Below, piece after piece: positions 267 to 15,957 of a stretch of DNA of 64,000 nt. The stretch is taken from NCBI GenBank assembly GCA_026708055.1, contig JAPOVS010000043.1, positions 1 to 64,000 on the forward strand, written 5' to 3'. The notes beneath the pieces were generated by a model that had not been told where the DNA came from, made no database searches, and was given only the letters and a program-made list of their open reading frames with translations. The stretch is from a bacterium. Its GTDB lineage: Bacteria; Actinomycetota; Acidimicrobiia; Acidimicrobiales; CATQHL01. Numbering within the stretch: position 1 is the stretch's first letter; each line of letters opens with the position of its first letter. Made by a program: the position numbers and the translations under genes.

Positions 267-388
267 TCCTCCCTCTCGCACGAGTATCGGAATATAGTCA
301 ATAAATATAGATTATCTGCTCAAAGTGTGCTAGGAATACCGTGCCGGCCGTGGCCGGCACCCGGGCAGGCGGCGTGGAGGAGCGGGTC
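267..388. promoter_or_regulatory. AT-rich divergent promoter region
   Basis: About 285-330 is strikingly AT-rich for this window (runs such as AATATAGTCAATAAATATAG). It lies between the divergent prepilin peptidase and surface protein genes, so it probably holds promoters for both. GGAGGAG at 377-383 is the ribosome binding site that fixes the start at 389. No specific operator was recognised. Confidence 0.45.
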
Positions 389-3300
389 ATGGGCAGCGTT
401 GGTGTGGGCGGTCGGCGGGCTTTCGTGTGGTGGGTGGTCGCAGTGGCGTTGTTCGCTGGCGCGTTGGGCGGCGCGGTGCTTCCGCCCGCGGCGGCCGCGG
501 AGGTCGCGGCGCCTGCGGCGACCGGGAGCGTGCCGGGTGTGGAGTTGTCCGTGGGCGGCGCGGCGCGCGCCGTCGCCGCGGGGGGCTATTTCACCGGCGC
601 CGTCGCTTCCTACAGCGCCAGCAGCGCCGACGCGGCGGTGGTGTCGGTGTCGGTGTCGGGTTCGGCGGTCACCGTTTCGCCCGTCGGCGCGGGGTCCACG
701 ACTGTCACGGTCACCGCCGCGAACGCCGCGGGCAGCGCCGCGCAGGCTTTCGCCGTGAAGGTGCTGCCGGCGGGCTGCGTGGTGGCGCTGGGGACCCTGG
801 CGGCGGGGTCGGTCGTGGCCAAGTCCGGGTCGTGGGCGCGCGGCGGGGGGTGCCGGTCGGCGCACCGCGCGGGCGCCCTGTCGGCGCGCTACGCGGCGCG
901 GTACTATTCGTTCACGGTCGCCGAGCCGCTGGAGGCGTGGTTCCGGTTGTCGAGTCCCCAGAGCAGGCGCCTGTACCTCCTGGAGGGCGCCGGCACGGGG
1001 GGGCGCGTCCTGGACTCGGCGGGCACCCCCCGGGCGGCGTCGGCGTCGCTGTGGGAGGCCTTGCAGCCCGGCGACTACACCCTGGAGGCGACGACGTACC
1101 ACCCGGGCAGGGAGGGGGGCTTCAGCGTGAGCATCGACTCGATGGCGCTGTCGCCCCCGGCGGCGTGCACGGCCTCGCTGGGGGCCCTCGCCGCGGGGTC
1201 GGTCACCACCCAGGCCGGCTCGTGGGCGCGCGGCGACGGCTGCCGGTCGGTGCACCTCACGAACAGCCAGTCGCAGCGCTACTACGCCCGGTACTACACC
1301 TTCACGGTGGCCGAGGCGCTGGAGGCGCGGTTCCGCCTGTCCGGCGCCGAGGGCAAGTACCTGCACCTCCTCGCCGGCGCCGGGACCGCCGGGCGCGTCA
1401 TCGCCCGCCGGGGCGCCCCCAGCGCGGCCGCGGCGGCGTCGGGGTGGGCGGCGCTGGCGCCGGGCGCCTACACCGTCGCGGCCGCGACGTACTACCCGGG
1501 CCGCGAGGCGGACTTCTCGCTGTCGATCGACTCGATGGCGCTCACCCCGCCCGCGGCGTGCGTGACGTCGCTGGGGACGCTGGCGGCGGGGTCGACCGTC
1601 GCCCGCAGCGGCGCCTGGGCGCGCGGCGACGGCTGCCGGTCCCTGCACGCCACCTCCAGCCGGGCGGTCCGCTACTACGCCGACTACGCGACCTTCACGG
1701 TGCCCGCGGCGGGCGAGGCGCGCATCGCCCTCGCCGGCGGCTCCCCGGCGCGCCTGTACCTGCTGGGCGGCGCCGGGACCGGCGGGCGCCTGCTCGCCTC
1801 GGTGGGCCACGACCGCGCCGCGTCGAACCCCACGATCCGGCAGGTCCTGCAGCCCGGCGCCTACACCGTGGAGACCGCCGCCCGCTCCCCGAGGACCGAA
1901 GCCGACTACACCCTCAGCGTCTCCCTGGCGGTCTCGGCGCCCACGAGGGGCGACGCGCCCGCGCCCCAGCAGATCCCCGCGCGCCGCGCCGCCGCGCGAA
2001 TCGACATGGCCGCGGCGTTCAACGGCAACATCGACACCTACACCGCCGCGAGCAGCGACACGTCGGTGCTGACCGTGACCACGGCGGGTTCGGTCCTCAC
2101 GCTCAACGGCGTGACCGCCGGCACCGCCACCGTCACCGTCACCGCCGCCAACGCCGCCGGCAGCGCCGCCCAGACCTTCGCGGTGACCGTCACCGCCGCC
2201 GCGCCCCGAGCGGCCGGCGCCCCCGCCGCCCAGACCCTCACCGCCGGCGGAACCGCCACCGTCGACGTGGCCGCGGCGTTCACCGGCAACATAGACACCT
2301 ACACCGCCACCAGCAGCGACACCACTGTGGTGTCGGTGTCCACGACGGGTTCGGCCCTCACCCTCACCGGCGTCGCCGCCGGCACCGCCACCGTCACCGT
2401 CACCGCCGCCAACACCGCCGGCAGCGCCGCACAGACCATCGCCGTCACCGTCAACCCGCCCGCGCCCCGAGCGGCCGGCGCCCTCGCCGCGCGGACCCTC
2501 ACCGCCGGCGCCGGCGCCACCGTGGACGTAGCGGGAGCCTTCACCGGCGCCGTCGACTCCTATCTGGTGACCTCCAGCAACGCCGCCGTCCTGGACATCG
2601 CCCTGGCGGGATCCGTGGTGACGCTCACCGGCGTCGCCGCCGGCACCGCCACCGTCACCGTTGCCGCCGCCAACCGGACCGGCAGCGCCACCCAGACCAT
2701 CGCCGTGACCGTGAACCTCCCCCCCGCGCCGACCCTCGGCGCCACACTCGCCGCGCAGACCCTGCAAGTCACCGAGACCCTCGCTGTGGACGTCGCCGCT
2801 GGCTTCAGCGGGCAGATCGACACCTACACCGCCGTCTCCGGAAACACCGACAAACTCACCGTCACCGTCGACGGCTCAGCAGTCTCCCTCCGCGGCGTGG
2901 CGGCGGGATCCACGACGGTCACCGTGACTGCCATCAACGCCGCCGGACGCGCCGCCCGGTCCTTCGCGGTCACGATCAAAGCGCTCGCCGCCCCGCAGAC
3001 CGCCGGCACACCCCTGGCCCGCACCATCGCCGCCGGCGAAGAACTCCCCCTCCACGTCGCCGACGCCTTCACCGGCATCGTCCACACCTACACCGCCACC
3101 AGCAACAACACCGCTGTACTCACCACCGCCGCCGACGGCCCCACCGTCACCCTGGTCGGCACCGCCCCCGGAACCGCCACCGTCACCCTCACCGCCGCCA
3201 ACACCGCCGGGACCGCCACTCAGACCTTCACGGCCACTGTCACCAAGGCGGCCAAGTTCGCCGTGGCGCTCGCCGCGCCCTCCCACTGCTTGGGTTCCGA

Positions 3301-6300
3301 GGGCACACGGGCCCCCGGCGGCGGACGCCGAGGCGTCGGCTACATCGACCTCACCTACCACATCACCGGCGGCGCCGGCCCCTACGCCGTCACCAGCCCC
3401 GACGCCCCCGACACCACCCACACCGAACCCACCGGCACCCTCACCATCCCCTGCGCCCGACGCGGCATCGACCCCGCCACCGCCGACCCCACCACCAACG
3501 TCGTCGAAGCCGGCCCCCGCACCCTCACCCTCACCGCAACCGACAACACCGGCACCACCACCACCGCCGACATCCAAATCGAAATCGCCGAGAACGCCTA
3601 CACCACCGAATACAACGGCGGCCAAATGCATCCCGGCAAGACCTACGTCCTCGGCACGCCGGACCAGTGGGTCCTCGCCACCCTGCCCGAAGGCCTCACC
3701 CTCCAATTCTCTGGCCTCAGCGAACACAACGTGGCCCACTTCACCGAACCCAGCACCGGAACCGAGATCCTCCTAGACTGGACGACCGGCACCGAACTAG
3801 GCCGCACCACCCGCAGCGACACCATCACACCAACAACAAGTACCGAACAGACAAGCACAACCTCTACACTCAGCACTGCGGCGACCCTCAGACGGCTAGC
3901 AATCACCAACTCTCTCGGCCTCACATACGGAGCCGATTCAACAGAATGGCGCCCCTACGCGAACCTCCCTAACTCTTACCGTATTAGGTTCCCGGACGGT
4001 AAGTTTAGGCCGTTTACTCCGCAGGTCGCGGTCCATCAGAGGATGCTCATTGGCGAGCCGATACGAGTCTGCGCCGAGCCTGTCAATTCCGGGAATGCGG
4101 CAGATGACCAGGCGTTCAAGGACAACGTCGAGGCGAGCGCGAAAGCTTGGAACGACAGCATCAAGGATCCCACTGACCCCACTAGAGATTGGAATCCGAG
4201 TTTCGCGAGGGAGCTGTTCAAGTTTCTAGAGGACTGCACTAGTACGACCGATCCCGAACTCAATGCCGACCTCACAGTCCTGAGAGTCGAAGATGAAGAT
4301 GAAGATGGAAACGCAGTTATCAAGCAGGCCAAGTACTGCGGAAACAACGTGGGAGCATGTGCGAGAATCGCCGCGACCGGCACGAACCCGCCGATGATCG
4401 GGGGGTCGGAGATCATCGTCAAGAGCGAGAATGCGAAAAACCGCGGCACGATGATCCACGAACTCGGGCACTTCTTGGGCCTCGGCGACTACTCTGATGC
4501 CAACGAAGACAAGTGCGACAAAGACCCCAGCGACCAAGTCGACCCGCGGCGTCCCTATTTCGCGTCAGTCATGGCGGGCGGAGACTGCTATGAGGGTTCG
4601 GTCCAACCGCGGGACTTGGCTGATCTGCACCTAGTCTATCATCCGTACGCGCGTACGGGCATGCGCTTCGAAGCGGTTGGTGCGAGTGGATGGGAGTTGG
4701 ACCCTGGTGATCCGCCACGGGACATGGGAAGAGAGGTGATCAAAGAAGGGAGATTCAGTGTAAGGGAGTACAGGTATGTGAGTAACGCGGCAGCGTACGT
4801 GGTGTTCCGGCGCGCCTTCGGTTCAACGGGCGCGTATACCCTTGTGGGCAAGTTCGGCCGCTCGGCGTCGAGGGTGTTACCCGTCGGACAGCTCAGTGAA
4901 TTGGGCCCTGATCGTGGTGTGATCGAGGGCCAGGTGTTCTATGTCTTCGGCGTCACCGGTGGCGATATCGAGCAAAGCACCAGCACATACCTGGAAGTGC
5001 ACGCCACTCTGCCGTTTGATCTCGGGTCACTAACTGGTGCACCGGGTACATGTGACTGGACGCTCGGTCATGGCGCGACGGTCTACGGCCCACCGGCGAG
5101 GCCAGTGAGTGTGCGGACAGAGACTAGGAGCCGCGAAGTAGACGTCGTCTGGCCTCATGTTGCAGGCGCGACCGATTACGACGTGTACCGCCACGACACT
5201 GCGAAGATGATCGAGGAGCCGACGACGACGGGCGGGCATCCTGAGAGTTACCGCGAGAAGCGGAACGTTCGAGCGTCGACGCGGACGAGTTGCGGTATGC
5301 GCGTCACGTTCGATGGACTGGAGAATCGCAGCACATACTATTTCCGTGTCCGCGCGAATCGCGATGGCGTCGACCTTGGCAGCCGCCTTTCCGCGGAGGT
5401 GTCGGGGCGACCGTTAGCTGTGGGCCCGCCCGGGTCGTCCGCGGGACACTCTGGGGGAGTGGGTAAGTCGGCGTCGGCGTCATCGGCCGAGTCGGCGGAT
5501 CCGTGCACTCCCCCTGCGGAGGTCGACCCGGTCGAGGGGGATCCCTATTGTCCGAGGGATGATGGTTATTCGTGGGTGTTGCGGGCTGATGTTGGTGGTG
5601 ATTGGTGGTGCGATCGGGCGGAGTCCGCCGATGTGGTGTCGACGACAGTGGAACAGTGTGACGTGGCTGGAGACGTGCTGCATGTCGGGGCTGATGGTGC
5701 GCGGGTGTGCGCGCGGGAGGTGCTGGGGACGTTGCGGTCGCGTCCGGGTCCGCCGAAGTGTGCGGCGGGGTACGCGTGGGTGCCGGCGTCGCGGACGTGT
5801 TCGCGGACCGCCAGCCTGCCGGCGGCGGCGTCGGCGAAGTATTCGTGCTCGGCGGGGTATTCGCTGGTGGTTACGCCGGTGCCGTTCGGCACGCCTTTGC
5901 GCCAGTGCAAGAAGTCGGTGGCGGCGACGTCGACGTTGAAGTATGTGTGCTCGGAGGGGTATTCGTTGGTGAGGATCCCGTTGGGCGGCCGGTACTGCCG
6001 CAAGTCGGTGCCGGCGGCGGCGTCGGCGAAGTATTCGTGCTCGGCGGGGTATTCGCTGGTGGTTACGCCGGTGCCGTTCGGCACGCCTTTGCGCCAGTGC
6101 AAGAAGTCGGTGGCGGCGACGTCGACGTTGAAGTATGTGTGCTCGGAGGGGTATTCGTTGGTGAGGATCCCGTTGGGCGGCCGGTACTGCCGCAAGTCGG
6201 TGCCGGCGTCGGCGACGTATTCGTGCCCGTCGGGTTACACGCGCAGCGCCGCGACCTGTCACAGGTACGTCTACACGAGCCTGACGGGCGCGACGTGCCC

Positions 6301-7042
6301 GGCGGGCTACTCGGTCATCTACAACGGCCTCTACTTTCTGTGCCGCAAGAAGATCACCGCCGCCGCCACGGCCACCTATTCGTGCCGCGCGGGGAGGCTG
6401 TCGGGCTCGCAGTGCGTGTTCACCGCTTCGCCGACGACGGAGACGGTGTATTCGTGCCGCGCGGGGAGGCTGTCGGGCACGAACTGCATCTCTACCGCGA
6501 CGCCGACGACGGAGACGGTGTACTCGTGCCGCGCGGGGAGGTTGTCGGGCTCGCAGTGCGTGTTCACCGCTTCGCCGACGACGGAGACGGTGTATTCGTG
6601 CCGCGCGGGGAGGTTGTCGGGCTCGCAGTGCGTCCTTTCGGTCCCACCCACATCCACGGTCACCTACGACTGCGACGACGCGCCCGCCGGTTACACCCTC
6701 TCGGGCCAGGACTGCGTCAAGAAAACCACGAAATCACCGACGCGGCCGACCATCTACTACTGCGACGCCGGCTACATACTCAACACCGGCGAGGACAACA
6801 CCTGCAGCCGAACAATCACCACAACCCCCACCGAAATCACCGTCGACGGCTGCCCGAGCGTCCCAACAGGCGAACCCCTCTACAAACTCACCACCGCAAC
6901 CACCGCAACGACCACCATCACAACCTGCACACGCACCATCACCATCCCCGCAACCACCCCCCGCAGTTGCCCAGCCGGCTACAAGCCGGTCCTCACCGTC
7001 GGCGAGTACCGGATCGCCCGCACGTCATGTGGGCTGGACTGA
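389..7042 (+). CDS. Giant secreted surface protein: Ig-like repeats, metzincin-type protease, FnIII, Cys-rich repeats
   Basis: This predicted 2,217-residue exported protein starts at ATG 389, preceded by GGAGGAG; ATG 341 is in frame but lacks a site. A signal peptide is evident (residues 9-35, WWVVAVALFAGALGG then Ala-rich). After it come one Ig-like repeat, three Cys-containing beta modules (each with a SWARG.GCRS motif), and about five more Ig-like repeats ending in VTVTAANAAGSAAQ-type strands. A protease domain follows, with HELGHFLGLGD at residues 1357-1367 (metzincin HExxHxxGxxD) and a Met-turn candidate at Met1395. Next is an FnIII-like domain (about 1567-1675), then Cys-rich repeats to the C-terminus. 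The protease part (about 3880-5400) is visibly less GC-rich than the repeats. A role in adhesion or matrix/host-protein cleavage is inferred. No sortase motif or C-terminal anchor was seen. Confidence 0.85.
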   Translation: MGSVGVGGRRAFVWWVVAVALFAGALGGAVLPPAAAAEVAAPAATGSVPGVELSVGGAARAVAAGGYFTGAVASYSASSADAAVVSVSVSGSAVTVSPVGAGSTTVTVTAANAAGSAAQAFAVKVLPAGCVVALGTLAAGSVVAKSGSWARGGGCRSAHRAGALSARYAARYYSFTVAEPLEAWFRLSSPQSRRLYLLEGAGTGGRVLDSAGTPRAASASLWEALQPGDYTLEATTYHPGREGGFSVSIDSMALSPPAACTASLGALAAGSVTTQAGSWARGDGCRSVHLTNSQSQRYYARYYTFTVAEALEARFRLSGAEGKYLHLLAGAGTAGRVIARRGAPSAAAAASGWAALAPGAYTVAAATYYPGREADFSLSIDSMALTPPAACVTSLGTLAAGSTVARSGAWARGDGCRSLHATSSRAVRYYADYATFTVPAAGEARIALAGGSPARLYLLGGAGTGGRLLASVGHDRAASNPTIRQVLQPGAYTVETAARSPRTEADYTLSVSLAVSAPTRGDAPAPQQIPARRAAARIDMAAAFNGNIDTYTAASSDTSVLTVTTAGSVLTLNGVTAGTATVTVTAANAAGSAAQTFAVTVTAAAPRAAGAPAAQTLTAGGTATVDVAAAFTGNIDTYTATSSDTTVVSVSTTGSALTLTGVAAGTATVTVTAANTAGSAAQTIAVTVNPPAPRAAGALAARTLTAGAGATVDVAGAFTGAVDSYLVTSSNAAVLDIALAGSVVTLTGVAAGTATVTVAAANRTGSATQTIAVTVNLPPAPTLGATLAAQTLQVTETLAVDVAAGFSGQIDTYTAVSGNTDKLTVTVDGSAVSLRGVAAGSTTVTVTAINAAGRAARSFAVTIKALAAPQTAGTPLARTIAAGEELPLHVADAFTGIVHTYTATSNNTAVLTTAADGPTVTLVGTAPGTATVTLTAANTAGTATQTFTATVTKAAKFAVALAAPSHCLGSEGTRAPGGGRRGVGYIDLTYHITGGAGPYAVTSPDAPDTTHTEPTGTLTIPCARRGIDPATADPTTNVVEAGPRTLTLTATDNTGTTTTADIQIEIAENAYTTEYNGGQMHPGKTYVLGTPDQWVLATLPEGLTLQFSGLSEHNVAHFTEPSTGTEILLDWTTGTELGRTTRSDTITPTTSTEQTSTTSTLSTAATLRRLAITNSLGLTYGADSTEWRPYANLPNSYRIRFPDGKFRPFTPQVAVHQRMLIGEPIRVCAEPVNSGNAADDQAFKDNVEASAKAWNDSIKDPTDPTRDWNPSFARELFKFLEDCTSTTDPELNADLTVLRVEDEDEDGNAVIKQAKYCGNNVGACARIAATGTNPPMIGGSEIIVKSENAKNRGTMIHELGHFLGLGDYSDANEDKCDKDPSDQVDPRRPYFASVMAGGDCYEGSVQPRDLADLHLVYHPYARTGMRFEAVGASGWELDPGDPPRDMGREVIKEGRFSVREYRYVSNAAAYVVFRRAFGSTGAYTLVGKFGRSASRVLPVGQLSELGPDRGVIEGQVFYVFGVTGGDIEQSTSTYLEVHATLPFDLGSLTGAPGTCDWTLGHGATVYGPPARPVSVRTETRSREVDVVWPHVAGATDYDVYRHDTAKMIEEPTTTGGHPESYREKRNVRASTRTSCGMRVTFDGLENRSTYYFRVRANRDGVDLGSRLSAEVSGRPLAVGPPGSSAGHSGGVGKSASASSAESADPCTPPAEVDPVEGDPYCPRDDGYSWVLRADVGGDWWCDRAESADVVSTTVEQCDVAGDVLHVGADGARVCAREVLGTLRSRPGPPKCAAGYAWVPASRTCSRTASLPAAASAKYSCSAGYSLVVTPVPFGTPLRQCKKSVAATSTLKYVCSEGYSLVRIPLGGRYCRKSVPAAASAKYSCSAGYSLVVTPVPFGTPLRQCKKSVAATSTLKYVCSEGYSLVRIPLGGRYCRKSVPASATYSCPSGYTRSAATCHRYVYTSLTGATCPAGYSVIYNGLYFLCRKKITAAATATYSCRAGRLSGSQCVFTASPTTETVYSCRAGRLSGTNCISTATPTTETVYSCRAGRLSGSQCVFTASPTTETVYSCRAGRLSGSQCVLSVPPTSTVTYDCDDAPAGYTLSGQDCVKKTTKSPTRPTIYYCDAGYILNTGEDNTCSRTITTTPTEITVDGCPSVPTGEPLYKLTTATTATTTITTCTRTITIPATTPRSCPAGYKPVLTVGEYRIARTSCGLD
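5819..6202 (+). repeat. Two tandem 192-bp copies inside the surface protein gene
   Basis: Units 5819-6010 and 6011-6202 read as identical by eye. Each encodes 64 residues containing the Cys-rich modules YSCSAGYSLV and YVCSEGYSLV. The absence of differences points to a recent in-frame duplication or gene conversion. Confidence 0.9.
6377..6664 (+). repeat. Four tandem 72-bp Cys-rich repeats
   Basis: Units start at 6377, 6449, 6521 and 6593. Each encodes 24 residues built on YSCRAGRLSGSQC followed by a Thr/Pro-rich linker. A related array occurs in the decayed paralogue at 9650-9930. Confidence 0.9.
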
Positions 7043-7070
7043 GACGCAACCACCAACCGACTGGACCCGT
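7026..7070 (+). repeat. Spacer repeat, copy 1 (3' end of the surface protein gene)
   Basis: About 45 bp spanning the stop codon of the surface protein gene matches 10386-10430 at roughly four positions in five (shared core AACCACCAACC.ACTGGACCC). In both places an RCC1-like gene follows, so the pair marks the edge of a duplicated block. Confidence 0.7.
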
Positions 7071-7171
7071 GACCGGGTCTGTCAGGGATCCTAGGATCAT
7101 CTGGCGGTCCGGCTTCGGGTCAGGAGAACGGTCGGGGGGTTCGTGATGCGGCGTGCGGGTCGGTTGGGGTG

Positions 7172-9058
7172 ATGGTTCGGCGGTCCGACTCGAACGGCGC
7201 GCCGGCGCTCGGCGCGGCGGCGCGCCGTGGCGGTGTGGGTGTGGTGGTCGGGGTGTTGGCGGCGGCGGTCGGGGTGGCGGTCGCGCTGTGGCCCGGCGCC
7301 GAGAGTCCGCCGCCGGTCGTGGTGGCCGAGAGTCCGCCGCCGGGCGCGGCCCCCGCGGTGCCGTCGCCGCCGGTGGTGTCCCTTGAGGTTCCGTCGCTGC
7401 CGGTGCTGGCCGCGGGGCCGGTCGATTACGTGTTCGTTGCGGTTTCTGTGGGCAACTCGCATGCGTGCGGGTTGCTGAGCGACGCCGCCATCACGTGTTG
7501 GGGACAGAACCGCTACGGCCAGGCCCAACCGCCGGGCGGGCCTTTCGCGGCCGTCTCGGGCGGCAGCTTGTATTCGTGCGGGTTGCGCAGCGACGCCACC
7601 GTGGTGTGCTGGGGGTACAACGAGAACGGCGAAGCCGACGCGCCCGCGGGCTCCTTCGCGGCGGTGTCCGCCGGCGGTTCGCATTCGTGCGGGTTGCGCA
7701 GCGACGCCACCGTCGCCTGCTGGGGAGGGTACGGGGCCAGCCAGGCGGACGCGCCCGCGGGCTCCTTCGCGGCGGTGTCCGCCGGCGGTTCGCATTCGTG
7801 CGGGTTGCGCAGCGACGCCACCGTCGCCTGCTGGGGTTACAACGGAGACGGCCAGGCGGACGCGCCCCCCGGCACCTTCGCGGCGGTGTCTGCCGGCAGG
7901 TCGCATTCGTGTGGGTTGCGCAGCGACGCCGCCGTGGTGTGCTGGGGCGACAACGAGCACGGCCAGACCGATGCGCCGGCGGGCACCTTCACGGCCGTCT
8001 CCGCGAGCTTCCGGCATTCGTGCGGGTTGCGCAGCGACGCCACCGTTTCCTGCTGGGGCGACGACGGCCAAGCCGAGCGGGACGCGCCGGCGGGCGAGTT
8101 CGTCGCCGTCTCCACCGGCACCGAGGAGTCGTGTGGGTTGCGCAGCGACGCCACCGTTTCCTGCTGGGGCCAGCCCCATCACGGCAAGACGATTGGGTGG
8201 TCCGTGCCGCCGAGCGACTCCTACGTCGCCATCTCCGTACGGAGGTACCCGTGTCTGGTGCGCAGCGACGGCACCGCCTCCTGTGGCGGCATGACCCTGC
8301 CGGGGAGAACGTCCGCCTCGGCGGGCACCTTCTTAGCCGTCTCCGCCGGCGGCGAGCACGTGTGCGGGCTGCGCAGCGACGCCACCGTTGCCTGCTGGGG
8401 CAGCACAGAGCAATTCCTAAGCGCGGAAATCCGAATCGACGCGCCGGGCGGCACCTTCGTCGCCGTCTCCGCCGGCTGGGATCACTCGTGCGGGCTGCGC
8501 AGTGACGCCGCCGTGGTGTGCTGGGGCGCCAACGAGCACGGCCAAACCGGCGCGCCCGCCGGGACCTTCACAGCCGTCGCCGCCGGCTGGGATCACTCGT
8601 GCGGGCTGCGCAGCGACGCCGCCGTGGTGTGCTGGGGCGCCAACGAGCACGGCCAAACCGGCGCGCCCGCCGGGACCTTCACAGCCGTCGCCGCCGGCTG
8701 GGATCACTCGTGCGGGCTGCGCAGCGACGCCACCGTGGTGTGCTGGGGCGCCGACTACGGCCAAGCCGCCGCGCCGGGCGCCGCCTTCGGCCCGGGCGCC
8801 ACCTACGGCCCGGGCGGCACATTCGGCCCGGGCGGCGCCTTCACAGCCATCTCCGCCGGCGCTAACCATGCGTGCGGGCTGCGCAGCGACGGCACCGTTT
8901 CGTGCTGGGGCGCCAACGAGTACGGTCAAGCCGACGCGCCGGGCGGCACCTTCGTCGCCGTCGCCGCCAGCCTGGGGCATTCGGAAGCGTTGCGCAGCGA
9001 CGGCACCATCACAGCCTGGGGCGCAACCGCACTCGACCTCCAAAGCAACAACAACTGA
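7172..9058 (+). CDS. Secreted RCC1-like beta-propeller repeat protein (large copy)
   Basis: This 628-residue protein has a hydrophobic N-terminal export segment (GVVVGVLAAAVGVAVAL), a Pro-rich linker and about 13 repeats of roughly 37 residues. Each repeat carries a core like SHSCGLRSDATVACWG, typical of RCC1-type propellers found in bacterial surface proteins. The start is ATG 7172; GTG 7169 is adjacent and in frame. It follows the surface protein gene by 130 bases on the same strand. The second-last repeat is stretched by a Gly/Pro-rich insertion around 8780-8835. Export is supported, but the partner is unknown. RCC1-like folds usually bind proteins, so adhesion or host interaction is an inference only. 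Confidence 0.8.
   Translation: MVRRSDSNGAPALGAAARRGGVGVVVGVLAAAVGVAVALWPGAESPPPVVVAESPPPGAAPAVPSPPVVSLEVPSLPVLAAGPVDYVFVAVSVGNSHACGLLSDAAITCWGQNRYGQAQPPGGPFAAVSGGSLYSCGLRSDATVVCWGYNENGEADAPAGSFAAVSAGGSHSCGLRSDATVACWGGYGASQADAPAGSFAAVSAGGSHSCGLRSDATVACWGYNGDGQADAPPGTFAAVSAGRSHSCGLRSDAAVVCWGDNEHGQTDAPAGTFTAVSASFRHSCGLRSDATVSCWGDDGQAERDAPAGEFVAVSTGTEESCGLRSDATVSCWGQPHHGKTIGWSVPPSDSYVAISVRRYPCLVRSDGTASCGGMTLPGRTSASAGTFLAVSAGGEHVCGLRSDATVACWGSTEQFLSAEIRIDAPGGTFVAVSAGWDHSCGLRSDAAVVCWGANEHGQTGAPAGTFTAVAAGWDHSCGLRSDAAVVCWGANEHGQTGAPAGTFTAVAAGWDHSCGLRSDATVVCWGADYGQAAAPGAAFGPGATYGPGGTFGPGGAFTAISAGANHACGLRSDGTVSCWGANEYGQADAPGGTFVAVAASLGHSEALRSDGTITAWGATALDLQSNNN
8471..8803 (+). repeat. Three nearly identical 111-bp RCC1 repeats
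   Basis: Copies begin at 8471, 8582 and 8693 (period 111 bp, 37 residues). A second close pair with the same period begins at 7661 and 7772. Such near-identity suggests recent expansion by slippage or unequal exchange. Confidence 0.85.
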
Positions 9059-9123
9059 CCCTCGCCTCGCCATGCTGCGCCGCGGTGAGCCTCCGACCCC
9101 GACCGAGAGGCGGCGACCGCGAC

Positions 9124-10349
9124 GCCTTCGTGCTCGGCGGATTATGTCGGCGAGGCTCTACGTGCAGCCGGGCGTGGCCGGGCATCAGCGTGAGAAGTCG
9201 GTGCCGGCGACGGCGAAGACGACGTATTCGTGTTCGGGGGATTATTCGCTGGTGACGATCCCGATGCGTGGTCAGGAGTGCCGCAAGTCGGTGCCGGCGA
9301 CGGCGAAGACGAAGCGTTCGTGTTCGGGGGATTATTCGCTGAAGACGTTCTTCGTGCAGCCGGGCGTGGTGGGGTATCGGTGTGAGAAGTCGGTGCTGGC
9401 GACGGCGAAGACGACGTATTCGTGTTCGGAGGATTATTCGCTGGTGACGATCCCAATGGGTGGCCAGTACTGCCGCAAGTCAACGGCGGCGACGGCGACG
9501 TATTCGTGCCCGACGGGTTACACGCGCAGCGGCGCGACCTGTCACAAGTACACCTACACCAGCCCGAGCGGGCGCAGTTGTCCGGCGGGCTACTCGCCGA
9601 TCTACACCGGACTGGTTGTGACGTGCCGCAAGAAACTCACCACCGCCGCCACGGTCACCTACTCGTGCAGTTCGGGGACCCTGTCCGGTTCGAACTGCAT
9701 CCTCACAGCCACGCCGACGTCGATGACGACGTATTCGTGCAGTTCGGGGACACTGTCGGGTTCGAACTGTGTGGTGACAGCGACACCGACGTCGACGACG
9801 ACGTATTCGTGCACCTCGGGAACCCTGTCGGTCTCAAGCTGCATCTTCACGGCGACGCCGACACCGGAGACGATGTATTCGTGCACCTCGGGGCGCCTGT
9901 CGGGCTCGAACTGCATCCTCACCAACACGCCCACCGTCACCTACGACTGCGACGACGCGCCCGACGGCTACAGGCTCTCAGACCAGAACTGCACCAGGGT
10001 CACCATCAAAATCGCCACCCGGCCCACGATCTACACCTGTCCCGCCACCTACACCCGCAACGAGCCAACCGACCCCACTAACCCGCCCACCTGTACAAAG
10101 ATCGACATCATCAACGCCACCGTCACCACGACACCGGCCAGTTGTCCAAAAGTCGAACCCCCATTCCGACTCTACGAAGACCGCGTCGCCGGCAGGACCA
10201 AACACACCTGCGAGCGCACCATCACCACCGCCGCCCTCATCACCAGAACTTATTCGTGTCCCACAGACTATAGGCTCGAAAAGACAATCAACGGTCAAGA
10301 AACCGAGTACATCTGCAGACTGAAACAGACCACCACACCCAACACCTAA
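9124..10349 (+). pseudogene. Decayed paralogue of the C-terminal Cys-rich region of the surface protein
   Basis: From about 9200 the frame ending at 10349 encodes the same modules as the C-terminus of the 389-7042 protein: YSCSGDYSLVTIP, YSCPTGYTRSGATCHKY, 24-residue YSCSSGTLSGSNC repeats, then YDCDDAP.GY. There is no signal peptide or credible ribosome binding site. At 9124-9200 the DNA is homologous to an internal repeat (compare about 9308-9395) but carries a 2-nt length difference that breaks the frame. In-frame ATGs at 9072 and 9144 lie in or before this broken part. The likely reading is a 5'-truncated remnant of a second large surface gene. Expression as a short protein cannot be excluded. 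Confidence 0.7.
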
Positions 10350-10385
10350 CACCGCGCCAAAGTTTGCGCGATCCTCGGAGAGCTT

Positions 10386-10430
10386 CATGCAGACTGGGCT
10401 GACACACAACCACCAACCCACTGGACCCAT
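10386..10430 (+). repeat. Spacer repeat, copy 2 (before the second RCC1-like gene)
   Basis: This matches 7026-7070 and sits at the same place relative to an upstream Cys-repeat tail and a downstream RCC1-like gene. It supports block duplication of tail, spacer and RCC1 gene. Confidence 0.7.
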
Positions 10431-11373
10431 GTCTGGGGGTTGCGCGTCTGGAATTGTCAGTCGGGTGGCGCGTCGGCTGTTCTGCGGTAGCGGCGGGCGG
10501 GCCGTGTGGGTGGCGACCTTTGTAACGGTGTTCGTGGCGGGGGCGTGTGGGGGTGGCGAACCGACGCAACCGGTCGGGCGTGTGGTGGATGTGCCGGGGG
10601 TCTTCGTGGAGGTCTCGGCGGGTTTTCGCCATTCCTGTGGGCTGCGCGATGACGCGACGATCGCCTGTTGGGGCGACAACAGTCAAGGCCAACTCGACGC
10701 CCCGCCGGGGCGCTACAGCGCCGTCTCGGTGGGCAACTATTTCAGTTGCGCGGTCCGCGAGGACGCGTCGATCGCCTGCTGGGGCAGCAACTTCAGGGGC
10801 GAGAGCGACCCGCCGGAGGGCCGGTACAGCGCCGTCGCCGGCGGGGTGGCCCATGCGTGCGCGCTGCGACCCGACGGATACGTCGACTGCTGGGGCGAAG
10901 ACAGCTTCGGAAGCATCGAGCCGCCTCCGTGGCGGTTTGCCGCGATCGATCTCGGCGCCGCCCACTCGTGCGGCGTGCGCGCCGACGGCATCATCAAGTG
11001 CTGGGGCGTTCAGGGCCGTACATCCGTGGAGACGCCGCCAGTTGGGCGTTTCGACACACTGGGTGCCGGCGGTTCGGCAGCGTGTGGTTTCCGCGCCGAC
11101 GGCACCGCCATGTGTACCGGCTACTTCGTGAACGTACTGAGACCGGGACGGTTCACCGACGTGTCCATCGGCTGGGACCACGCTTGTGGGGTGCGCTTGG
11201 ACGGTTCGCTGCGGTGTTGGGGGGACAACTCGTATGGCCAAGGCGACCCCCCTGGTGGCCGGTTCGAGGCCGTGGCAGCTGGCGGAGAGCACTCGTGTGG
11301 CCTGCGCGGCGACGGCACCGTCACCTGCTGGGGCGCCGTCGGGTCCGCGCAACGGCACGGCCTCGCACGCTGA
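10387..11373 (+). CDS. Exported RCC1-like repeat protein (small copy), possible lipoprotein
   Basis: This 328-residue protein has about eight RCC1-like repeats (cores such as RHSCGLRDDATIACWG). The N-terminal hydrophobic stretch VWVATFVTVFVAGAC ends in a lipobox-like VAGAC followed by a Gly-rich linker, so lipid anchoring is possible. ATG 10387 has GGAGAG just upstream, but gives an unusually long polar leader. ATG 10429 and GTG 10465 are alternatives that would give a more normal signal peptide. It is the second RCC1-like gene of the duplicated block and shares spacer sequence with the first. Function beyond a predicted surface propeller is unknown. Confidence 0.75.
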   Translation: MQTGLTHNHQPTGPMSGGCASGIVSRVARRLFCGSGGRAVWVATFVTVFVAGACGGGEPTQPVGRVVDVPGVFVEVSAGFRHSCGLRDDATIACWGDNSQGQLDAPPGRYSAVSVGNYFSCAVREDASIACWGSNFRGESDPPEGRYSAVAGGVAHACALRPDGYVDCWGEDSFGSIEPPPWRFAAIDLGAAHSCGVRADGIIKCWGVQGRTSVETPPVGRFDTLGAGGSAACGFRADGTAMCTGYFVNVLRPGRFTDVSIGWDHACGVRLDGSLRCWGDNSYGQGDPPGGRFEAVAAGGEHSCGLRGDGTVTCWGAVGSAQRHGLAR

Positions 11374-11693
11374 CACGAGTCTGAGATGGCCTGCCCCGCA
11401 TGCTTCGCGGTCTGGTTTGTGCCGGGTCTCGCGCTGTCTGCTTGCTCTGGAGATCGTCCAGATCAGTGATCGAGGAAAGCGCGTTGTTGGGTCGGAGCAC
11501 GCGGCGGTTCAGGGCGATGTTCAAGGCCGCCGCGGTCGCGTTGCTCGTCGGCAGGCACCCGCCATGCCGCGAAGCGAACAGGTCAGGCCAGCCGGGGACC
11601 CTTGAGCCATCAGTGGCGGCAGAACTACGATATATTCTTATAGGAAATGGGTAGTACGTTCGGGGGTTGCTGCGGGTCGGCTTGCGGATCGAG
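11374..11693. other. Gap with no convincing gene; AT-rich promoter near its end
   Basis: No reading frame here has a recognisable product. Near 11628-11652 a short AT-rich stretch (ATATATTCTTATAGG-like) resembles a -10 region and probably drives the prepilin-like gene that follows. Confidence 0.4.
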
Positions 11694-12464
11694 ATGAGGG
11701 CGCGGCGTGGGGGTCGCGCCGGCGAGGCGGGGTTGGTGGCGTTGGAGTGGCTGCTGGTTGTGGCGGCTCTGGGGGGCCTCGCGGCGTTGGCGGTGGTTCT
11801 GGTGCAGCGTGTCGCCGACGACACCGCCGAGCAGGTCAGCGCCTCGCCGGCGCGGCGGACCGCGGCTGCGGTGGCGGCTCTGGAGGTCGAGCGCCAGGCC
11901 CGTGCGGCGACTGCGGCGAGTCCGCGCACAGCGACGTGGGCGGACTGGGAGAGCTACTTCTCCGCGCGGTGCGCGCGGCTGGCGATCCTCTACGCCGACG
12001 TCGCCGTGGAGGTGGACGCGGCGTTCGCGTGGCCGACGGCGGCCGTGGGGGCCGATCCGATCAGCGAGGCGGGCCTCGTCTCGGCAACCGAGGCGCCCCC
12101 CACGGGGTCCGTGCCGCAGGTGCGGTGCAACGTCGATGAACCCGACGGAGCGGTCGTAGTCGAAGCGCCGCCCCCTCTGCCGAGCATCGAGGACTTCCGC
12201 CTCGCCGCGCGGGCGATCGCCGACGCGGCGGCGAGGTTGCGACCAGGCGACACGTGGGCGACTTGGAAGGCGCACTTCGAGCCGCTGTGCAGCGACCTCG
12301 CCGCCGAATACGCGCACCTCGGCATCAACGTCCTGTCGCACTTCAACAAGCCGGCCGATCAGCCCGACCCCGGCGCCGCGGTCACACAGGACCTCCTCGA
12401 CGCCGCCACGACCGCGGCGCCCGGGAACGGCCGACCCCAAATCAAGTGTGAAGCCGACCGATGA
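11694..12464 (+). CDS. Flp-like prepilin / pseudopilin-type secreted protein
   Basis: This 256-residue protein begins with a short basic leader, then GLVALEWLLVVAALGGLAAL. The segment G-LVAL-E-W fits the Flp/Tad prepilin pattern (Gly, four residues, Glu, aromatic) followed by a hydrophobic helix. Family knowledge predicts cleavage after that Gly by a prepilin peptidase, and one is encoded at the left edge of the window. The rest is polar, with two similar segments (TWADWESYFSARC and TWATWKAHFEPLC) that suggest an internal duplication. It is longer than classical Flp pilins, so it may be a minor pilin or TadE-like protein. ATG 11694 gives the expected leader length; TTG 11667 is possible. Confidence 0.55.
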   Translation: MRARRGGRAGEAGLVALEWLLVVAALGGLAALAVVLVQRVADDTAEQVSASPARRTAAAVAALEVERQARAATAASPRTATWADWESYFSARCARLAILYADVAVEVDAAFAWPTAAVGADPISEAGLVSATEAPPTGSVPQVRCNVDEPDGAVVVEAPPPLPSIEDFRLAARAIADAAARLRPGDTWATWKAHFEPLCSDLAAEYAHLGINVLSHFNKPADQPDPGAAVTQDLLDAATTAAPGNGRPQIKCEADR

Positions 12465-12506
12465 ACCGCCGGCCACATCCGGAGAAGCCCGTGGGGCGCC
12501 GAGCGA

Positions 12507-12660
12507 TCAGGTGTAGTCGGCGTACTTCTCGAGGTGGCGGACTGGGCGGCTGAGGGCGTCCTTGCGGAACGGGTCGCCCAGCTCCTTGGTGCACATGACT
12601 TCCAGCACGGTGGTGCGGCCGGCGTTCATCTGGGCGTCGATCGCTGCGGTCAGCGCCAGT
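12507..12660 (-). pseudogene. Duplicated 3' fragment of xsc (about 50 codons)
   Basis: This encodes the C-terminal tail of sulfoacetaldehyde acetyltransferase, ending in SRPVRHLEKYADYT with a stop codon. It aligns with 14189-14340 at about nine bases in ten by eye. Homology stops abruptly at about 12657. It has no 5' part and no start, so it is a remnant. The two copies bracket the HTH/nucleotidyltransferase pair at 12715-14156. Confidence 0.85.
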
Positions 12661-12668
12661 TGCCCCTG

Positions 12669-12680
12669 ATCACGCGTGAT
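12669..12680. promoter_or_regulatory. Perfect 12-bp palindrome, possible operator
   Basis: ATCACGCGTGAT lies 35 bp upstream of the predicted start of the HTH gene, inside the short promoter region. This suits autoregulation by the HTH protein, but there is no direct evidence. Confidence 0.35.
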
Positions 12681-12714
12681 ACTGAACTCTTCCGTTATCA
12701 GTAGACTTCTGATT

Positions 12715-13380
12715 GTGGGCTTGAGGAGCGTGGAACAGGCGGCCGAGGAACTCGAGGTGACCTCTCGGCGCGTCCGGCAGATGCTTGCGGACGGGACACT
12801 CGAGGGACAGCGGGTCGGTGCTGTCTGGGTGATCGATGAGCGGGCGCTGCGGCTCGCTGCTCAGCGGCGACGCGCTGCGCACAGACCGTGGAGCCCCTCG
12901 TCTTCGTGGGCGGTTCTAGCTCTGGCGGATGGCGTCGAGCCCGCATGCACGCCCGCGCAGCGCTCGCGCGCGCGCCGGCGTCTGGCCGCTGGATTGGAGA
13001 ACCTCGTCGGGCCTCTCGCCTCCCGGGCGCACAGTCGATGGTTCTACGCGCACCCGTCGGCGGTCTCGCGCTTGGCGGCGCGTTCGGGCGTTGTCCGGAC
13101 GGCGGCGAGCGCATCGCCTGAATTCCACCTCGGCCTCGTCGGCTCCTGGCCACTGGAGGCCTACCTCCGACAGAGTGACCTCGAAGTGATCCTCGATGAG
13201 GAAGCGATGGAAGAGCGAACAGAACGGTTCAACCTGCTCCTGCGCGTCGTTGAGGATCGGATCTGGCCCTTCGGCCAAGGTGCTGAGGTAGCGCCTCGCC
13301 CGGCCGTGGCGGTCGACTTGTTGGAGTCCGACGACGAGCGCGCGCGCCGCGCCGGCGCCGAACTGTTGGTACGCCCGTGA
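12715..13380 (+). CDS. Excisionase-like helix-turn-helix protein, probable antitoxin partner
   Basis: This protein has about 221 residues. Its N-terminus (SVEQAAEELEVTSRRVRQML, about residues 4-23, then DGTLEGQRVGAVWVID) is a MerR/excisionase-type winged HTH. The rest is Arg/Ala-rich and not recognised. GTG 12715 is chosen because it directly follows a -10-like AT stretch and leaves a minimal leader; GTG 12676 is in frame but would overlap the palindrome. Its stop overlaps the start of the next gene (GTGA at 13377). In AbiE-like and related modules a DNA-binding protein precedes a nucleotidyltransferase, so an antitoxin/repressor role is inferred. The module sits between the two xsc 3' copies. 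Confidence 0.6.
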   Translation: MGLRSVEQAAEELEVTSRRVRQMLADGTLEGQRVGAVWVIDERALRLAAQRRRAAHRPWSPSSSWAVLALADGVEPACTPAQRSRARRRLAAGLENLVGPLASRAHSRWFYAHPSAVSRLAARSGVVRTAASASPEFHLGLVGSWPLEAYLRQSDLEVILDEEAMEERTERFNLLLRVVEDRIWPFGQGAEVAPRPAVAVDLLESDDERARRAGAELLVRP

Positions 13381-14156
13381 GCGCCCTGCGGCTTGATCGC
13401 CCACCGTTGCAGCTTCCCGATCTCCCCGGTTACGGCGACGAAATCTGGGGGACTCTCCTCGAACTCGCCGACGCGAAGTCTCGAGACTGGACCCTGATCG
13501 GCGGGCAGATGGTCCTCCTGCACGCACTCGAACATGACGCCGAACCGACTCGCCTGTCCACAGACCTTGACATTCTCGTGAACGCCCGCGTTGTCGCCGG
13601 TGCCGTCAGAGACTTCGTGAGAACGCTGGAGTCGCTCGGCTTCAGCCTCGCTGGGTCGTCACCCGACGTCATTGCTCACCGCTACGAGCGGGGCAGGGCG
13701 AGCGTCGATGTGCTGGCTCCTGAAGGACTCGGTCGGCGGGCCGATCTGACGACCACACCACCAGGGCGGACGATCCAAGTCCCCGCAGGTACCCAGGCGC
13801 TGGCCCGCACCGAGCTCCTACCGGTGGAGTACGCCGGCACCAGCGGGTTCGTTCCCCGTCCCTCGTTGCTCGGCGCGATCATCTGCAAGGCTGCCGCTGT
13901 CGCGGTGGACGATGCACCGAACGCGCAGCGGCTTGATCTCGCTGTGCTGTTGAGCCTCGTCACCGATCCAGCGGCGATGGCCCGGCAACTGACGCGCAAG
14001 GATCGCTCGCGCCTCCAGGGGGTGGTCGGAATGACCGATCCTGCCCACGAGGTCTGGTCGCACCTCGAGCCGTCGGTGGCGGACCGGGCGAGACTGGCAA
14101 TGGTCTCCCTGGTCGGTGAACCGTCGCTCGATCAGGATTCGGCAGTCGAGGGATAG
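13377..14156 (+). CDS. Nucleotidyltransferase-fold protein (AbiEii-like toxin candidate)
   Basis: This protein has 259 residues. Residues about 41-66 contain LIGGQMVLLHALEH followed by RLSTDLDILV. This matches the polymerase-beta-like nucleotidyltransferase signature (GG, then S/T-D-x-D) of AbiEii/AbiGii toxins and related proteins. It is co-translated with the upstream HTH protein. Members of this fold in two-gene modules can modify tRNA or proteins and arrest growth; the target here is unknown. It ends 34 bp from the convergent end of xsc. A metabolic nucleotidyltransferase is less likely given the HTH partner and the insertion-like context. Confidence 0.65.
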   Translation: MSALRLDRPPLQLPDLPGYGDEIWGTLLELADAKSRDWTLIGGQMVLLHALEHDAEPTRLSTDLDILVNARVVAGAVRDFVRTLESLGFSLAGSSPDVIAHRYERGRASVDVLAPEGLGRRADLTTTPPGRTIQVPAGTQALARTELLPVEYAGTSGFVPRPSLLGAIICKAAAVAVDDAPNAQRLDLAVLLSLVTDPAAMARQLTRKDRSRLQGVVGMTDPAHEVWSHLEPSVADRARLAMVSLVGEPSLDQDSAVEG

Positions 14157-14190
14157 CACTCGCCGTCCGGCGCGCCCAATCGGAGACCCA

Positions 14191-15957
14191 TCAGGTGAAG
14201 TCGGCGTACTTCTCCAGGTGGCGGACCGGGCGGCTGAGGGCGTCCTTGCGGAACGGGTCGCCGAGTTCCTTGGTGCACATGATCTCCAGGACAGTGGTGC
14301 GGCCGGCGTTCATCTGGGCGTCGATGGCGGCGGTCAGCGCCGGGCCGACGTCCTCGAGGTGGCGGACCCGCATGCCGTCGGCGCCCATGGCGCGGGCCAC
14401 CTCGGACCAGTCCTCGCCGCCGCCGAGCTCGCCGGCCACGAACCGGCGGCCGTAGAAGTCCACCTGGTTCTTCTTCTCCGCGCCCCACTGGCGGTTGTGG
14501 AACACCACCGCGGTGACCGGGATGTTGTGGCGCACTGCGGTCATGGTCTCCACCATGCTCATGGCCCACGCCCCGTCACCGGCGTAGGCCACCGCCGGGC
14601 GATCCGGCGCGGCCTTCTTGGCCCCGATGATGGTGGGCAGCGCATACCCGCAGTTGCCCCAGCTCATGGCGGCGAAGAACGACCGAGGCTCCTCGAAGCG
14701 CAGGTAGCTGTTGGAAACCGAGTTGATGTTGCCGATGTCGGTTGACACCATCACCCGCGCCGGCATGGCCCGCTCGAGTTCACGCAGAACCTGGCGGGGA
14801 TGCATCCAGTCGTCGTGCTCGGCGGCGGCCTGCTTGATCATGTCCACACTGAAGTCGTCGGTCTCCTCGGTCCAATCGTCCAGTTCGGCCTCCCAGTCGG
14901 CCTTGTCGGCGGCGATGCCGGCGGCCCGCTGCGCCTTCGTGGCATCGCAGGCCAGTTCCCGCCCCGCCAACCGCCCCAGAAGCGCCGTCGCCGCCGCGCC
15001 GGCGTCGCCGCAGATGCCCACGTCGATGCGCTTGACCAGGCCGAGCATCTTGGAGTCGGCGTCCACCTGGATGACCTTGGCCTCAGTGGGCCAATAGTCC
15101 AGGCCGTGCTGGGGCAGGGTGCCGAACGGGCCGAGCCGGGTGCCCAGCGCCAGCACCACGTCGGCCCGTGAGATCAGGCGCATCGCCGCCTTGGAGCCCT
15201 GGTAGCCCAGCGGCCCGCACCACAGCGGATGGGACGCGGGGAAGGAATCGTTGTGCAGGTAGCTGTTCACGACCGGGCAGCCGAGCCGCTCGGCCAGCGC
15301 AACCGTCTCGGTCATGGCGTCGCCCATCACCACCCCGCCGCCGGCGATCATCACCGGCAAGGTTGCCCCGGCCAGGAGGTCGGCGGCCGCGTCCAGGCTG
15401 CGGTCGCCTCCCGGGCCGCGGTCGAGGCGCTGCGGCGCCGGGATGGCCACGTCGATGTCGCCGTAGAAGCGGTCGCGGGGAATGTTGAGCTGCGTGGGCC
15501 CCATCTCCGACAGCGCCCGGTCGAAGCAGCGGGCCGTCAGCTCGGCCATGCGGCGCTCGTTGTTGACGTGGCCCTGGTACTTGGTGAACTCCTGGAACAT
15601 CGGCAGCTGGTTGGCCTCCTGGAACCCGCCGAGACCGATGCCCATCGTCCCCGCCTCGGGCGTGACGATCACGACGGGGCTGTGGGCCCAGAACGCCGCG
15701 GCGACGGCGGTCACGCAGTTGGAGATGCCCGGGCCGTTCTGGCCGATCACGACGCCGTGGCGGCCGCTCACGCGGCTGAAGCCGTCTGCCATGTGGGCCG
15801 CGCCCTGCTCGTGCACCACCGGCACCAGCTCGATGCCGGCCGGCTCGAAGATGTCCATGGCGTCCATGAAGGCGCTGCCCATGATGCCGAAGATGGTGTC
15901 GACGCCGTGGGCGACCATCGTCTCCACGAACGCCTCGCTGGGGGTCATGCGGGTCAT
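14191..15957 (-). CDS. xsc: Sulfoacetaldehyde acetyltransferase
   Basis: This TPP enzyme of 588 residues converts sulfoacetaldehyde plus phosphate to acetyl phosphate and sulfite, the desulfonation step of taurine breakdown. The length is normal for Xsc. The N-terminal TPP-enzyme domain carries the expected catalytic-Glu context (VVHEQGAAHMADGFSR), and the C-terminal domain has the TPP/Mg motif GDGAW followed about 25 residues later by VVFHNRQWGAEK. The pattern fits Xsc rather than acetolactate synthase (for example MGSAFMDAMDIF near the N-terminus and KDALSRPVRHLEKY at the end). The start ATG 15957 has GGAGGATGAGGAC directly upstream. It is last in an operon 24 bases after the molybdoprotein gene; pta is in the same cluster. 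Confidence 0.92.
   Translation of the reverse strand: MTRMTPSEAFVETMVAHGVDTIFGIMGSAFMDAMDIFEPAGIELVPVVHEQGAAHMADGFSRVSGRHGVVIGQNGPGISNCVTAVAAAFWAHSPVVIVTPEAGTMGIGLGGFQEANQLPMFQEFTKYQGHVNNERRMAELTARCFDRALSEMGPTQLNIPRDRFYGDIDVAIPAPQRLDRGPGGDRSLDAAADLLAGATLPVMIAGGGVVMGDAMTETVALAERLGCPVVNSYLHNDSFPASHPLWCGPLGYQGSKAAMRLISRADVVLALGTRLGPFGTLPQHGLDYWPTEAKVIQVDADSKMLGLVKRIDVGICGDAGAAATALLGRLAGRELACDATKAQRAAGIAADKADWEAELDDWTEETDDFSVDMIKQAAAEHDDWMHPRQVLRELERAMPARVMVSTDIGNINSVSNSYLRFEEPRSFFAAMSWGNCGYALPTIIGAKKAAPDRPAVAYAGDGAWAMSMVETMTAVRHNIPVTAVVFHNRQWGAEKKNQVDFYGRRFVAGELGGGEDWSEVARAMGADGMRVRHLEDVGPALTAAIDAQMNAGRTTVLEIMCTKELGDPFRKDALSRPVRHLEKYADFT

What the first reader, a model, noticed from the sequence alone, without database searches (positions are those of the whole stretch)
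7026..11373. Block duplication: Cys-rich tail, spacer and RCC1-like gene occur twice
The order Cys-repeat tail, 45-bp spacer, RCC1-like gene occurs at 5800-9058 and again at 9124-11373. In the second block the big gene is reduced to a frameshifted tail, so the ancestor had two large surface genes each followed by an RCC1 gene. This points to an expanding and decaying surface-protein family.
Basis: seen in the sequence. Interest (0 to 1): 0.55.

Follow-up and report, generated by a model that had tools for sequence, protein, structure and literature searches.

The report
Headless tail-plus-RCC1 blocks behind protease gene
A large, protease-like, probably secreted gene of a bacterium is followed by a partner gene and then by an extra, beheaded copy of a tail with another partner, and relatives carry longer rows of such blocks, which look like the product of repeated duplication and DNA swapping.

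Summary
In detail: tail, spacer and RCC1 gene occur twice; the second tail is headless and frameshifted; the 53-bp spacer match (81%, E 1.4e-6) is not chance. But block 2 is not a copy of block 1: its tail end is 40% identical to tail 1 and 63-67% to another tail class, and a stub of a tail-1-type end precedes its RCC1 gene. The large gene is a mosaic: conserved head, saturated-divergent metalloprotease-like core, less diverged Cys-rich tail. In a second genus a protease gene is followed by five RCC1 genes (93-99% identical), four of them preceded by a 111-119-bp stub of the protease gene's 3' end; three other arrays there lack stubs. A same-genus genome has one head and two headless tail-RCC1 blocks, one sharing 183-bp and 140-bp exact tracts with the full gene's block around a more diverged core. 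So headless blocks can form without a second head; a two-head ancestor is not needed here, though tandem full genes exist in a relative. Best reading: arrays of orphan 3'-end/RCC1 cassettes made by tandem duplication and recombination. Whether they act as donors is untested.

The parts
389..7042 (+). Large gene (ORF from 341; Met at 389 followed by a signal-peptide-like stretch): repeat/Ig-like head, PKD, metzincin-like core, FN3-like part, Cys-rich tail
   Evidence: signal peptide judged by eye
271..3789 (+). Conserved 5' part including upstream sequence, 86% nt identical to the copies on contigs C28 and C50
   Evidence: codon profile
3790..5720 (+). Divergent core with HELGHFLGLGD (at about 4457) and SVMA; four-fold sites 42% identical to C28 and to C50
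   Evidence: metzincin label from motif only
5747..7042 (+). Cys-rich tail 1 with a 192-bp exact tandem duplication 5817-6008/6009-6200
7025..7077 (+). End of tail 1 and spacer, matched at 10385-10437
7169..9058 (+). RCC1a, 629 aa, beside tail 1
9059..9108 (+). 50-bp junction between RCC1a stop and headless tail 2
9109..10349 (+). Headless, frameshifted tail 2 of the other tail class
10360..10437 (+). Stub of a tail-1-type end plus spacer before and into the start of RCC1b; a matching end with its stop stands before the RCC1b counterpart of G005
10387..11373 (+). RCC1b, lipoprotein-like start, open frame, dN/dS 0.47 against its G005 counterpart
   Evidence: lipobox by eye
11667..12464 (+). Prepilin-like gene (G|LVALEW hydrophobic motif, by eye) that closes the array here, on C28 and in G005
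   Evidence: no Pfam or NCBIfam hit

Best explanation
The window holds one member of a locus type so far seen in one bacterial family: a large mosaic gene (conserved head, variable metzincin-like core, Cys-rich tail), an RCC1-propeller gene that goes with the tail class, and a downstream orphan block made of the 3' end of a large gene plus an RCC1 gene, closed by a prepilin-like gene. Orphan blocks form by tandem duplication whose left end lies inside the 3' end of the large gene (seen as recent copies in a second genus), then diverge, are exchanged between loci or species, and decay. In this window the orphan block is composite: a class II tail without its own partner next to a class I stub with RCC1b. 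Shown: the architecture, the mosaic, near-identical tandem copies, exact tracts between a full gene's block and an orphan block. Inferred: secretion and surface location, pairing of tail and RCC1 protein, protease activity, and that the window's block arose the same way as the recent copies elsewhere.
For: Mosaic by segment among the three copies of this genome: head 80% aa with 80-83% four-fold identity, core 39-50% with 42-57%, tail 54-81% with 73-87%; the C28 core is 73% identical to a copy in G006, 41 and 50% to its own paralogs. Tail 2 belongs to another class than tail 1. Tail and RCC1 similarities agree over 7 pairs, r 0.75, reached in 30 of 5040 permutations. G005 contig C67: head, tail, RCC1, then RCC1b, then two headless tail-RCC1 blocks, then the prepilin-like gene. 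Its last block and the full gene's block share 183-bp and 140-bp exact tracts around an RCC1 core mostly 47-80% identical in 40-bp bins. G001: five tandem RCC1 genes, the four extra ones preceded by 111-119-bp stubs of the protease gene's end; in another array units of 2.4 kb are 92% identical with a third stub behind. Informative sites in the five-gene array cluster by pattern (40 like neighbours, mean 18.0 in shuffles, 0 of 10000 as high).
Against: Three other G001 arrays with two or more RCC1 genes (one behind a truncated core) show no stubs. Tail 2 keeps about 410 codons, far more than the G001 stubs. Tail 1 and tail 2 share no exact run over 28 bp, so no recent exchange of tails inside the window. 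The orphan RCC1 gene of G005 is about half as long as the full block's (285 against 574 aa), and other alignment registers give 79-82% over 695-947 bp, so the contrast of core and flanks depends partly on register. The genomes with this tail class are fragmented, several copies end at contig ends, and C28 and C43 could be strain alleles. No dN/dS is significantly above 1. The 7 pairs include related loci.
Confidence: 0.6

Rival explanations
1. Head deletion: two full genes stood in tandem, each with an RCC1 gene, and the second lost everything up to its tail.
For: Two full protease genes in tandem, each followed by RCC1 genes, exist on the G001 contig (620572-634823). C50 ends and C28 begins inside a tail, which could be one tandem pair. 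Tail 2 is long.
Against: The junction is only 50 bp, with no head or core match; headless blocks exist as near-identical tandem copies in G001; gaps before the two G005 headless tails are about 100 bp, so equally neat deletions would have to recur.
Confidence: 0.25
2. Orphan blocks are donor cassettes (an addition to the best explanation, not an alternative): recombination copies orphan tail ends or RCC1 cores into the full locus and so varies a surface complex.
For: Identical flanks with a more diverged core between the full block and an orphan in G005; mosaic patterns in the G001 array.
Against: No exchange tract between the two tails of the window; all five G001 array genes have open frames and may simply be expressed; identical flanks could also come from duplication and repeat loss.
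Confidence: 0.2
3. Polymorphic-toxin-like locus: the large gene is an effector and each RCC1 protein its immunity protein; orphans are displaced effector-immunity ends.
For: Constant head, variable 3' part, partner gene of matching class, orphan 3'-end/partner modules.
Against: No toxin family above cut-off in Pfam or NCBIfam; RCC1 proteins look exported (by eye) and in one array stand in five near-identical copies; in C28 and one G006 copy the HExxH motif reads EELGH. In PMC3482391, of which I saw passages, the only RCC1 string is part of a virus name.
Confidence: 0.1
4. The two blocks are an assembly or binning artefact of strain variants.
For: C43 begins with sequence shared with C28, and both carry the prepilin-like gene followed by an xsc end.
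Against: Both blocks lie inside one contig of 122,627 bases, and G005 and G001 show the same architecture; the Tad genes beside the C50 copy have no second full copy.
Confidence: 0.05

Closest known systems
Orphan C-terminal/immunity cassettes of Rhs, CDI and MafB polymorphic toxins
   Same: Constant 5' part, variable 3' part, adjacent partner gene, orphan 3' modules downstream (Rhs/CDI/MafB details recalled; recombination with standalone cassettes is stated in the abstract of PMC3482391, seen)
   Different: Partner is an exported-looking RCC1 propeller; 3' part is a metzincin-like core and Cys-rich repeats; no toxin family found
Silent-cassette antigenic variation (Neisseria pilS, Borrelia vls), recalled
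   Same: Headless segments beside one full gene; near-identical flanks with a more diverged core in one pair
   Different: Orphans carry a complete second gene; no expression switch shown
RCC1_2 repeat proteins (PF13540)
   Same: 12 and 6 repeat stretches in RCC1a and RCC1b
   Different: Exported-looking, two Cys per repeat, in tandem gene arrays behind a protease-like gene
Metzincin proteases (HExxHxxGxxD with Met-turn; definition recalled)
   Same: HE-GH motif in 5 of 6 and the downstream Met in 5 of 6 aligned copies
   Different: No Pfam or NCBIfam peptidase model above its cut-off; model too poor to test the fold

Membership tests
Polymorphic toxin system | Constant N-terminal part with variable C-terminal part | tested here: met
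   but the tail behind the variable core is again less diverged
Polymorphic toxin system | Recognisable toxin domain at the C terminus | tested here: not met
   no such family above cut-off in the window gene
Polymorphic toxin system | Partner gene confers immunity | not testable with these tools
   needs a growth assay
Polymorphic toxin system | Orphan 3' modules with partner genes | tested here: met
   window tail 2; two in G005; four in one G001 array and one in another; none in three further G001 arrays
Silent-cassette variation system | Recombination between full locus and headless copies | tested here: inconclusive
   exact tracts in G005; none between the window's tails
RCC1 propeller | Tandem RCC1 repeats above Pfam cut-off | tested here: met
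Metzincin | HExxHxxGxxD and Met-turn | tested here: met
   window copy; first His replaced in C28 and in L094
Metzincin | Metzincin fold | tested here: inconclusive
   mean pLDDT 32.7
Tad pilus gene cluster | Tad ATPase and TadE genes next to the locus | tested here: inconclusive
   present beside the C50 copy; beside the window copy only a prepilin-like gene judged by motif

The most novel reading that the evidence does not exclude
A lineage-specific diversity-generating surface system: rows of headless 3'-end/RCC1 cassettes serve as donors, and recombination in the near-identical tail-end and RCC1-end flanks swaps RCC1 cores and tail classes into the single full-length protease locus, so that protease core, tail and RCC1 partner vary semi-independently.
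Probability: 0.18. Interest if true: 0.75.

Novelty: new variant of a known kind. Interest (0 to 1): 0.5.

Why it matters
It shows a constant-head/variable-core gene with orphan 3'-end/partner cassettes, an architecture I know best from toxins (recalled), built here from a metzincin-like core and RCC1 propellers. With the core profile it was found in 5 of 248 genomes sampled from the order, all five in this family (at most 7 candidates scored per genome; other orders were not searched). It gives concrete tests of whether RCC1 propellers are partners of Cys-rich tails and of whether the arrays drive surface variation.

Tried and rejected
Simple tandem duplication of today's block 1 into block 2: rejected on tail class. 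Positive selection: dN/dS 0.30-1.25 over 24 comparisons; the only value above 1 (tail 1-C50, 1.25) has an interval that includes 1. Among 14 pairs of G001 tandem RCC1 genes one pN/pS was 1.37, no interval computed. Fold of the core: model useless. Fold of the tail: beta-rich repeat model, mean pLDDT 71, pTM 0.30; 0 of 137 PDB matches at E <= 0.001. Solved relatives by sequence: core 3 matches, best E 0.33; tail profile 0 at E <= 1. Viral contigs: no relative of a 167-aa piece of the core. The one scan of genome contigs gave two loci. Literature: the terms Acidimicrobi and RCC1 gave one paper, on algae-associated bacteria (listing); the listings show no paper on such arrays, which covers only that open-access library. 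Isolate names SB0661 and APA_bin gave nothing relevant; that such bins come from sponges is recalled and unchecked. PADLOC: two weak hits for the helix-turn-helix protein, none for the other three proteins given.
Full report
CHECK. The window is the start of contig C43 of a 3.9-Mb, 87-contig genome. The large gene runs from about 389 to 7042 and carries Big_2 and PKD domains over their cut-offs, FN3 and metalloprotease matches below theirs, the motif HELGHFLGLGD, and a Cys-rich tail. RCC1a (7169-9058) and RCC1b (10387-11373) are RCC1_2 proteins. The two spacers match over 53 bp at 81% (E 1.4e-6 in the whole genome). Tail 2 (9109-10349) has no head and a 2-bp register loss near its start.

NOT A COPY. 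The last 120 or so residues of tail 1 and tail 2 are 40% identical. Tail 2 is 63-67% identical to the tail ends of C28 (two), G006 C241 (L093) and the headless tail of G005; tail 1 is 66% identical to a G006 copy (L094) and 58% to the full-gene tail of G005. RCC1a is closest to the RCC1 gene beside that same L094 tail (63%), RCC1b to an RCC1 gene of G005 (62%), among the ten RCC1 genes compared. Between tail 2 and RCC1b lies a stub that reads like a tail-1-type end; in G005 such an end with its stop stands before the RCC1b counterpart. Block 2 is therefore composite. RCC1b is open and changes under constraint (dN/dS 0.47, interval 0.33-0.70).

MOSAIC GENE. Three large genes exist in this genome: window, C28 and C50, the last cut by the contig end; a fourth, weak match on C26 (25% identity) was not followed further. 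In bins of 100 codons, four-fold-site identity between window and C28 is 74-96% up to residue 1101, 25-55% from 1102 to 1793, and 61-82% in the tail. Over segments, among the three copies: head 80% aa / 80-83% four-fold; core 39-50 / 42-57; tail 54-81 / 73-87. The C28 core is 73% identical to a G006 copy, more than to either paralog at home (41 and 50%). The HExxH motif reads EELGH in C28 and in L094.

PAIRING. For 7 tail-RCC1 pairs (window 1, C28 two, L093, L094, G005 two), tail and RCC1 similarities correlate (Pearson 0.75, 30 of 5040 permutations as high; Spearman 0.73, 61 of 5040). Left out: tail 2-RCC1b, because a foreign stub separates them; the third G005 block, whose tail is only a short end; L095 and C50, which have no RCC1 gene or no tail end on their contigs. 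L094's RCC1 gene is cut by the contig end. The loci are related, so this is suggestive only.

RELATIVES, SAME GENUS. G005 contig C67 carries head (with a frame break), core, tail, RCC1, an RCC1 fragment, an insertion sequence (transposase-like frames, by eye), RCC1b, a headless class II tail with RCC1, a short headless tail end with a shortened RCC1, then the prepilin-like gene. The full gene's block and the last orphan block share an exact 183-bp tract over tail end and spacer and an exact 140-bp tract over the RCC1 end; next to these tracts identity is 78-97% over roughly 200 bp, and in the core 47-80% per 40-bp bin. The orphan RCC1 gene is shorter, and other registers align at 79-82% over longer stretches, so part of the contrast may come from repeat loss. 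I read it as recent recombination between full and orphan blocks. In the window the longest exact match of the two tails is 28 bp. In G003 a head is fused to RCC1 repeats in one frame (L101).

RELATIVES, SECOND GENUS. G001 has 3 contigs and 93% completeness, so assembly breaks matter less. Of 7 genes with the HExxH motif in the stretches read, 6 are directly followed on the same strand by an RCC1 gene and 4 of these by two or more (2, 3, 5 and 2); one has none. An eighth, truncated core without the motif is followed by two RCC1 genes. In the five-gene array the RCC1 genes are 93-99% identical in 10 pairs, and each of the 4 extra genes is preceded by a stub of the protease gene's end, the main piece 111-119 bp at 96-100%. 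In another array two units 2.4 kb apart are 92% identical and a third stub follows. The other three arrays with two or more RCC1 genes show no stubs (two by DNA and protein; the one behind the truncated core by protein only). Site patterns in the five-gene array are clustered (40 like neighbours against 18.0 in shuffles, 0 of 10000 as high), as expected from conversion or unequal exchange.

DISTRIBUTION. With the core profile A5, 5 of 248 genomes sampled from the order matched, all in this family (at most 7 candidates scored per genome). With the Cys-tail profile A2, 2 of 198 matched; G005-G007 do not appear in that listing. With A1, 7 of 9 genomes of the family matched. Orders beyond this one were not searched with these profiles, except by the pattern-based scan (two loci). 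G003 contig C94 has the length of record VXNF01000044.1, an Acidimicrobiia MAG, so the window's genus most likely belongs to Acidimicrobiia.

CONTEXT. The C50 copy lies next to a Tad-type cluster: T2SSE, T2SSF, SAF and TadE over their Pfam cut-offs, the ATPase resembling a TadA-family model below its cut-off; this stretch has no second full copy in the genome. The prepilin-like gene that closes the array has no family hit. Relatives of it match in 7 of 9 family genomes. Of 12 further stretches fetched for such matches, 1 has RCC1 matches and 2 have weak large-gene matches, 4 have TadG-like and 2 TadE-like matches; in two G005 loci it lies between an RCC1 gene and a divergent large gene (L097, L098). 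So it is not a constant companion of the large genes.

MECHANISM. Most likely tandem duplication with one end inside the 3' end of the large gene creates headless blocks; recombination between blocks, loci and species then mixes tails, cores and partners; unused parts decay. The product is probably a secreted protease-like protein on a Cys-rich stalk with an exported RCC1 propeller as partner. Shown: architecture, near-identical tandem copies, exact tracts. Inferred: secretion, pairing, activity, biological use.

Noticed in passing
12501-12657 and 14185-14341: 92% direct repeat of the xsc 3' end flanks a helix-turn-helix gene (12676-13380) and a nucleotidyltransferase-like gene (13377-14156; label by motif, recalled AbiEii-like, no Pfam hit); xsc itself is sulfoacetaldehyde acetyltransferase.
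   Followed up: partly
L036 (C28) 11665-14709: 1015-aa ORF without Pfam hit, divergent from the C28 large gene; relatives in G005 and G006 stretches.
   Followed up: no
L036 (C28) about 6.7-8.0 kb and L094: Metalloprotease motif reads EELGH instead of HELGH, a possible natural inactive version.
   Followed up: partly
L101 (G003 C94) 5977-8760: Head fused in frame to RCC1 repeats, skipping core and tail.
   Followed up: no
own genome, contigs C38, C76, C44, C74, C15: RCC1 matches reach the contig ends, so the number of arrays may be underestimated.
   Followed up: no
5817-6200: 192-bp exact tandem duplication inside tail 1.
   Followed up: no
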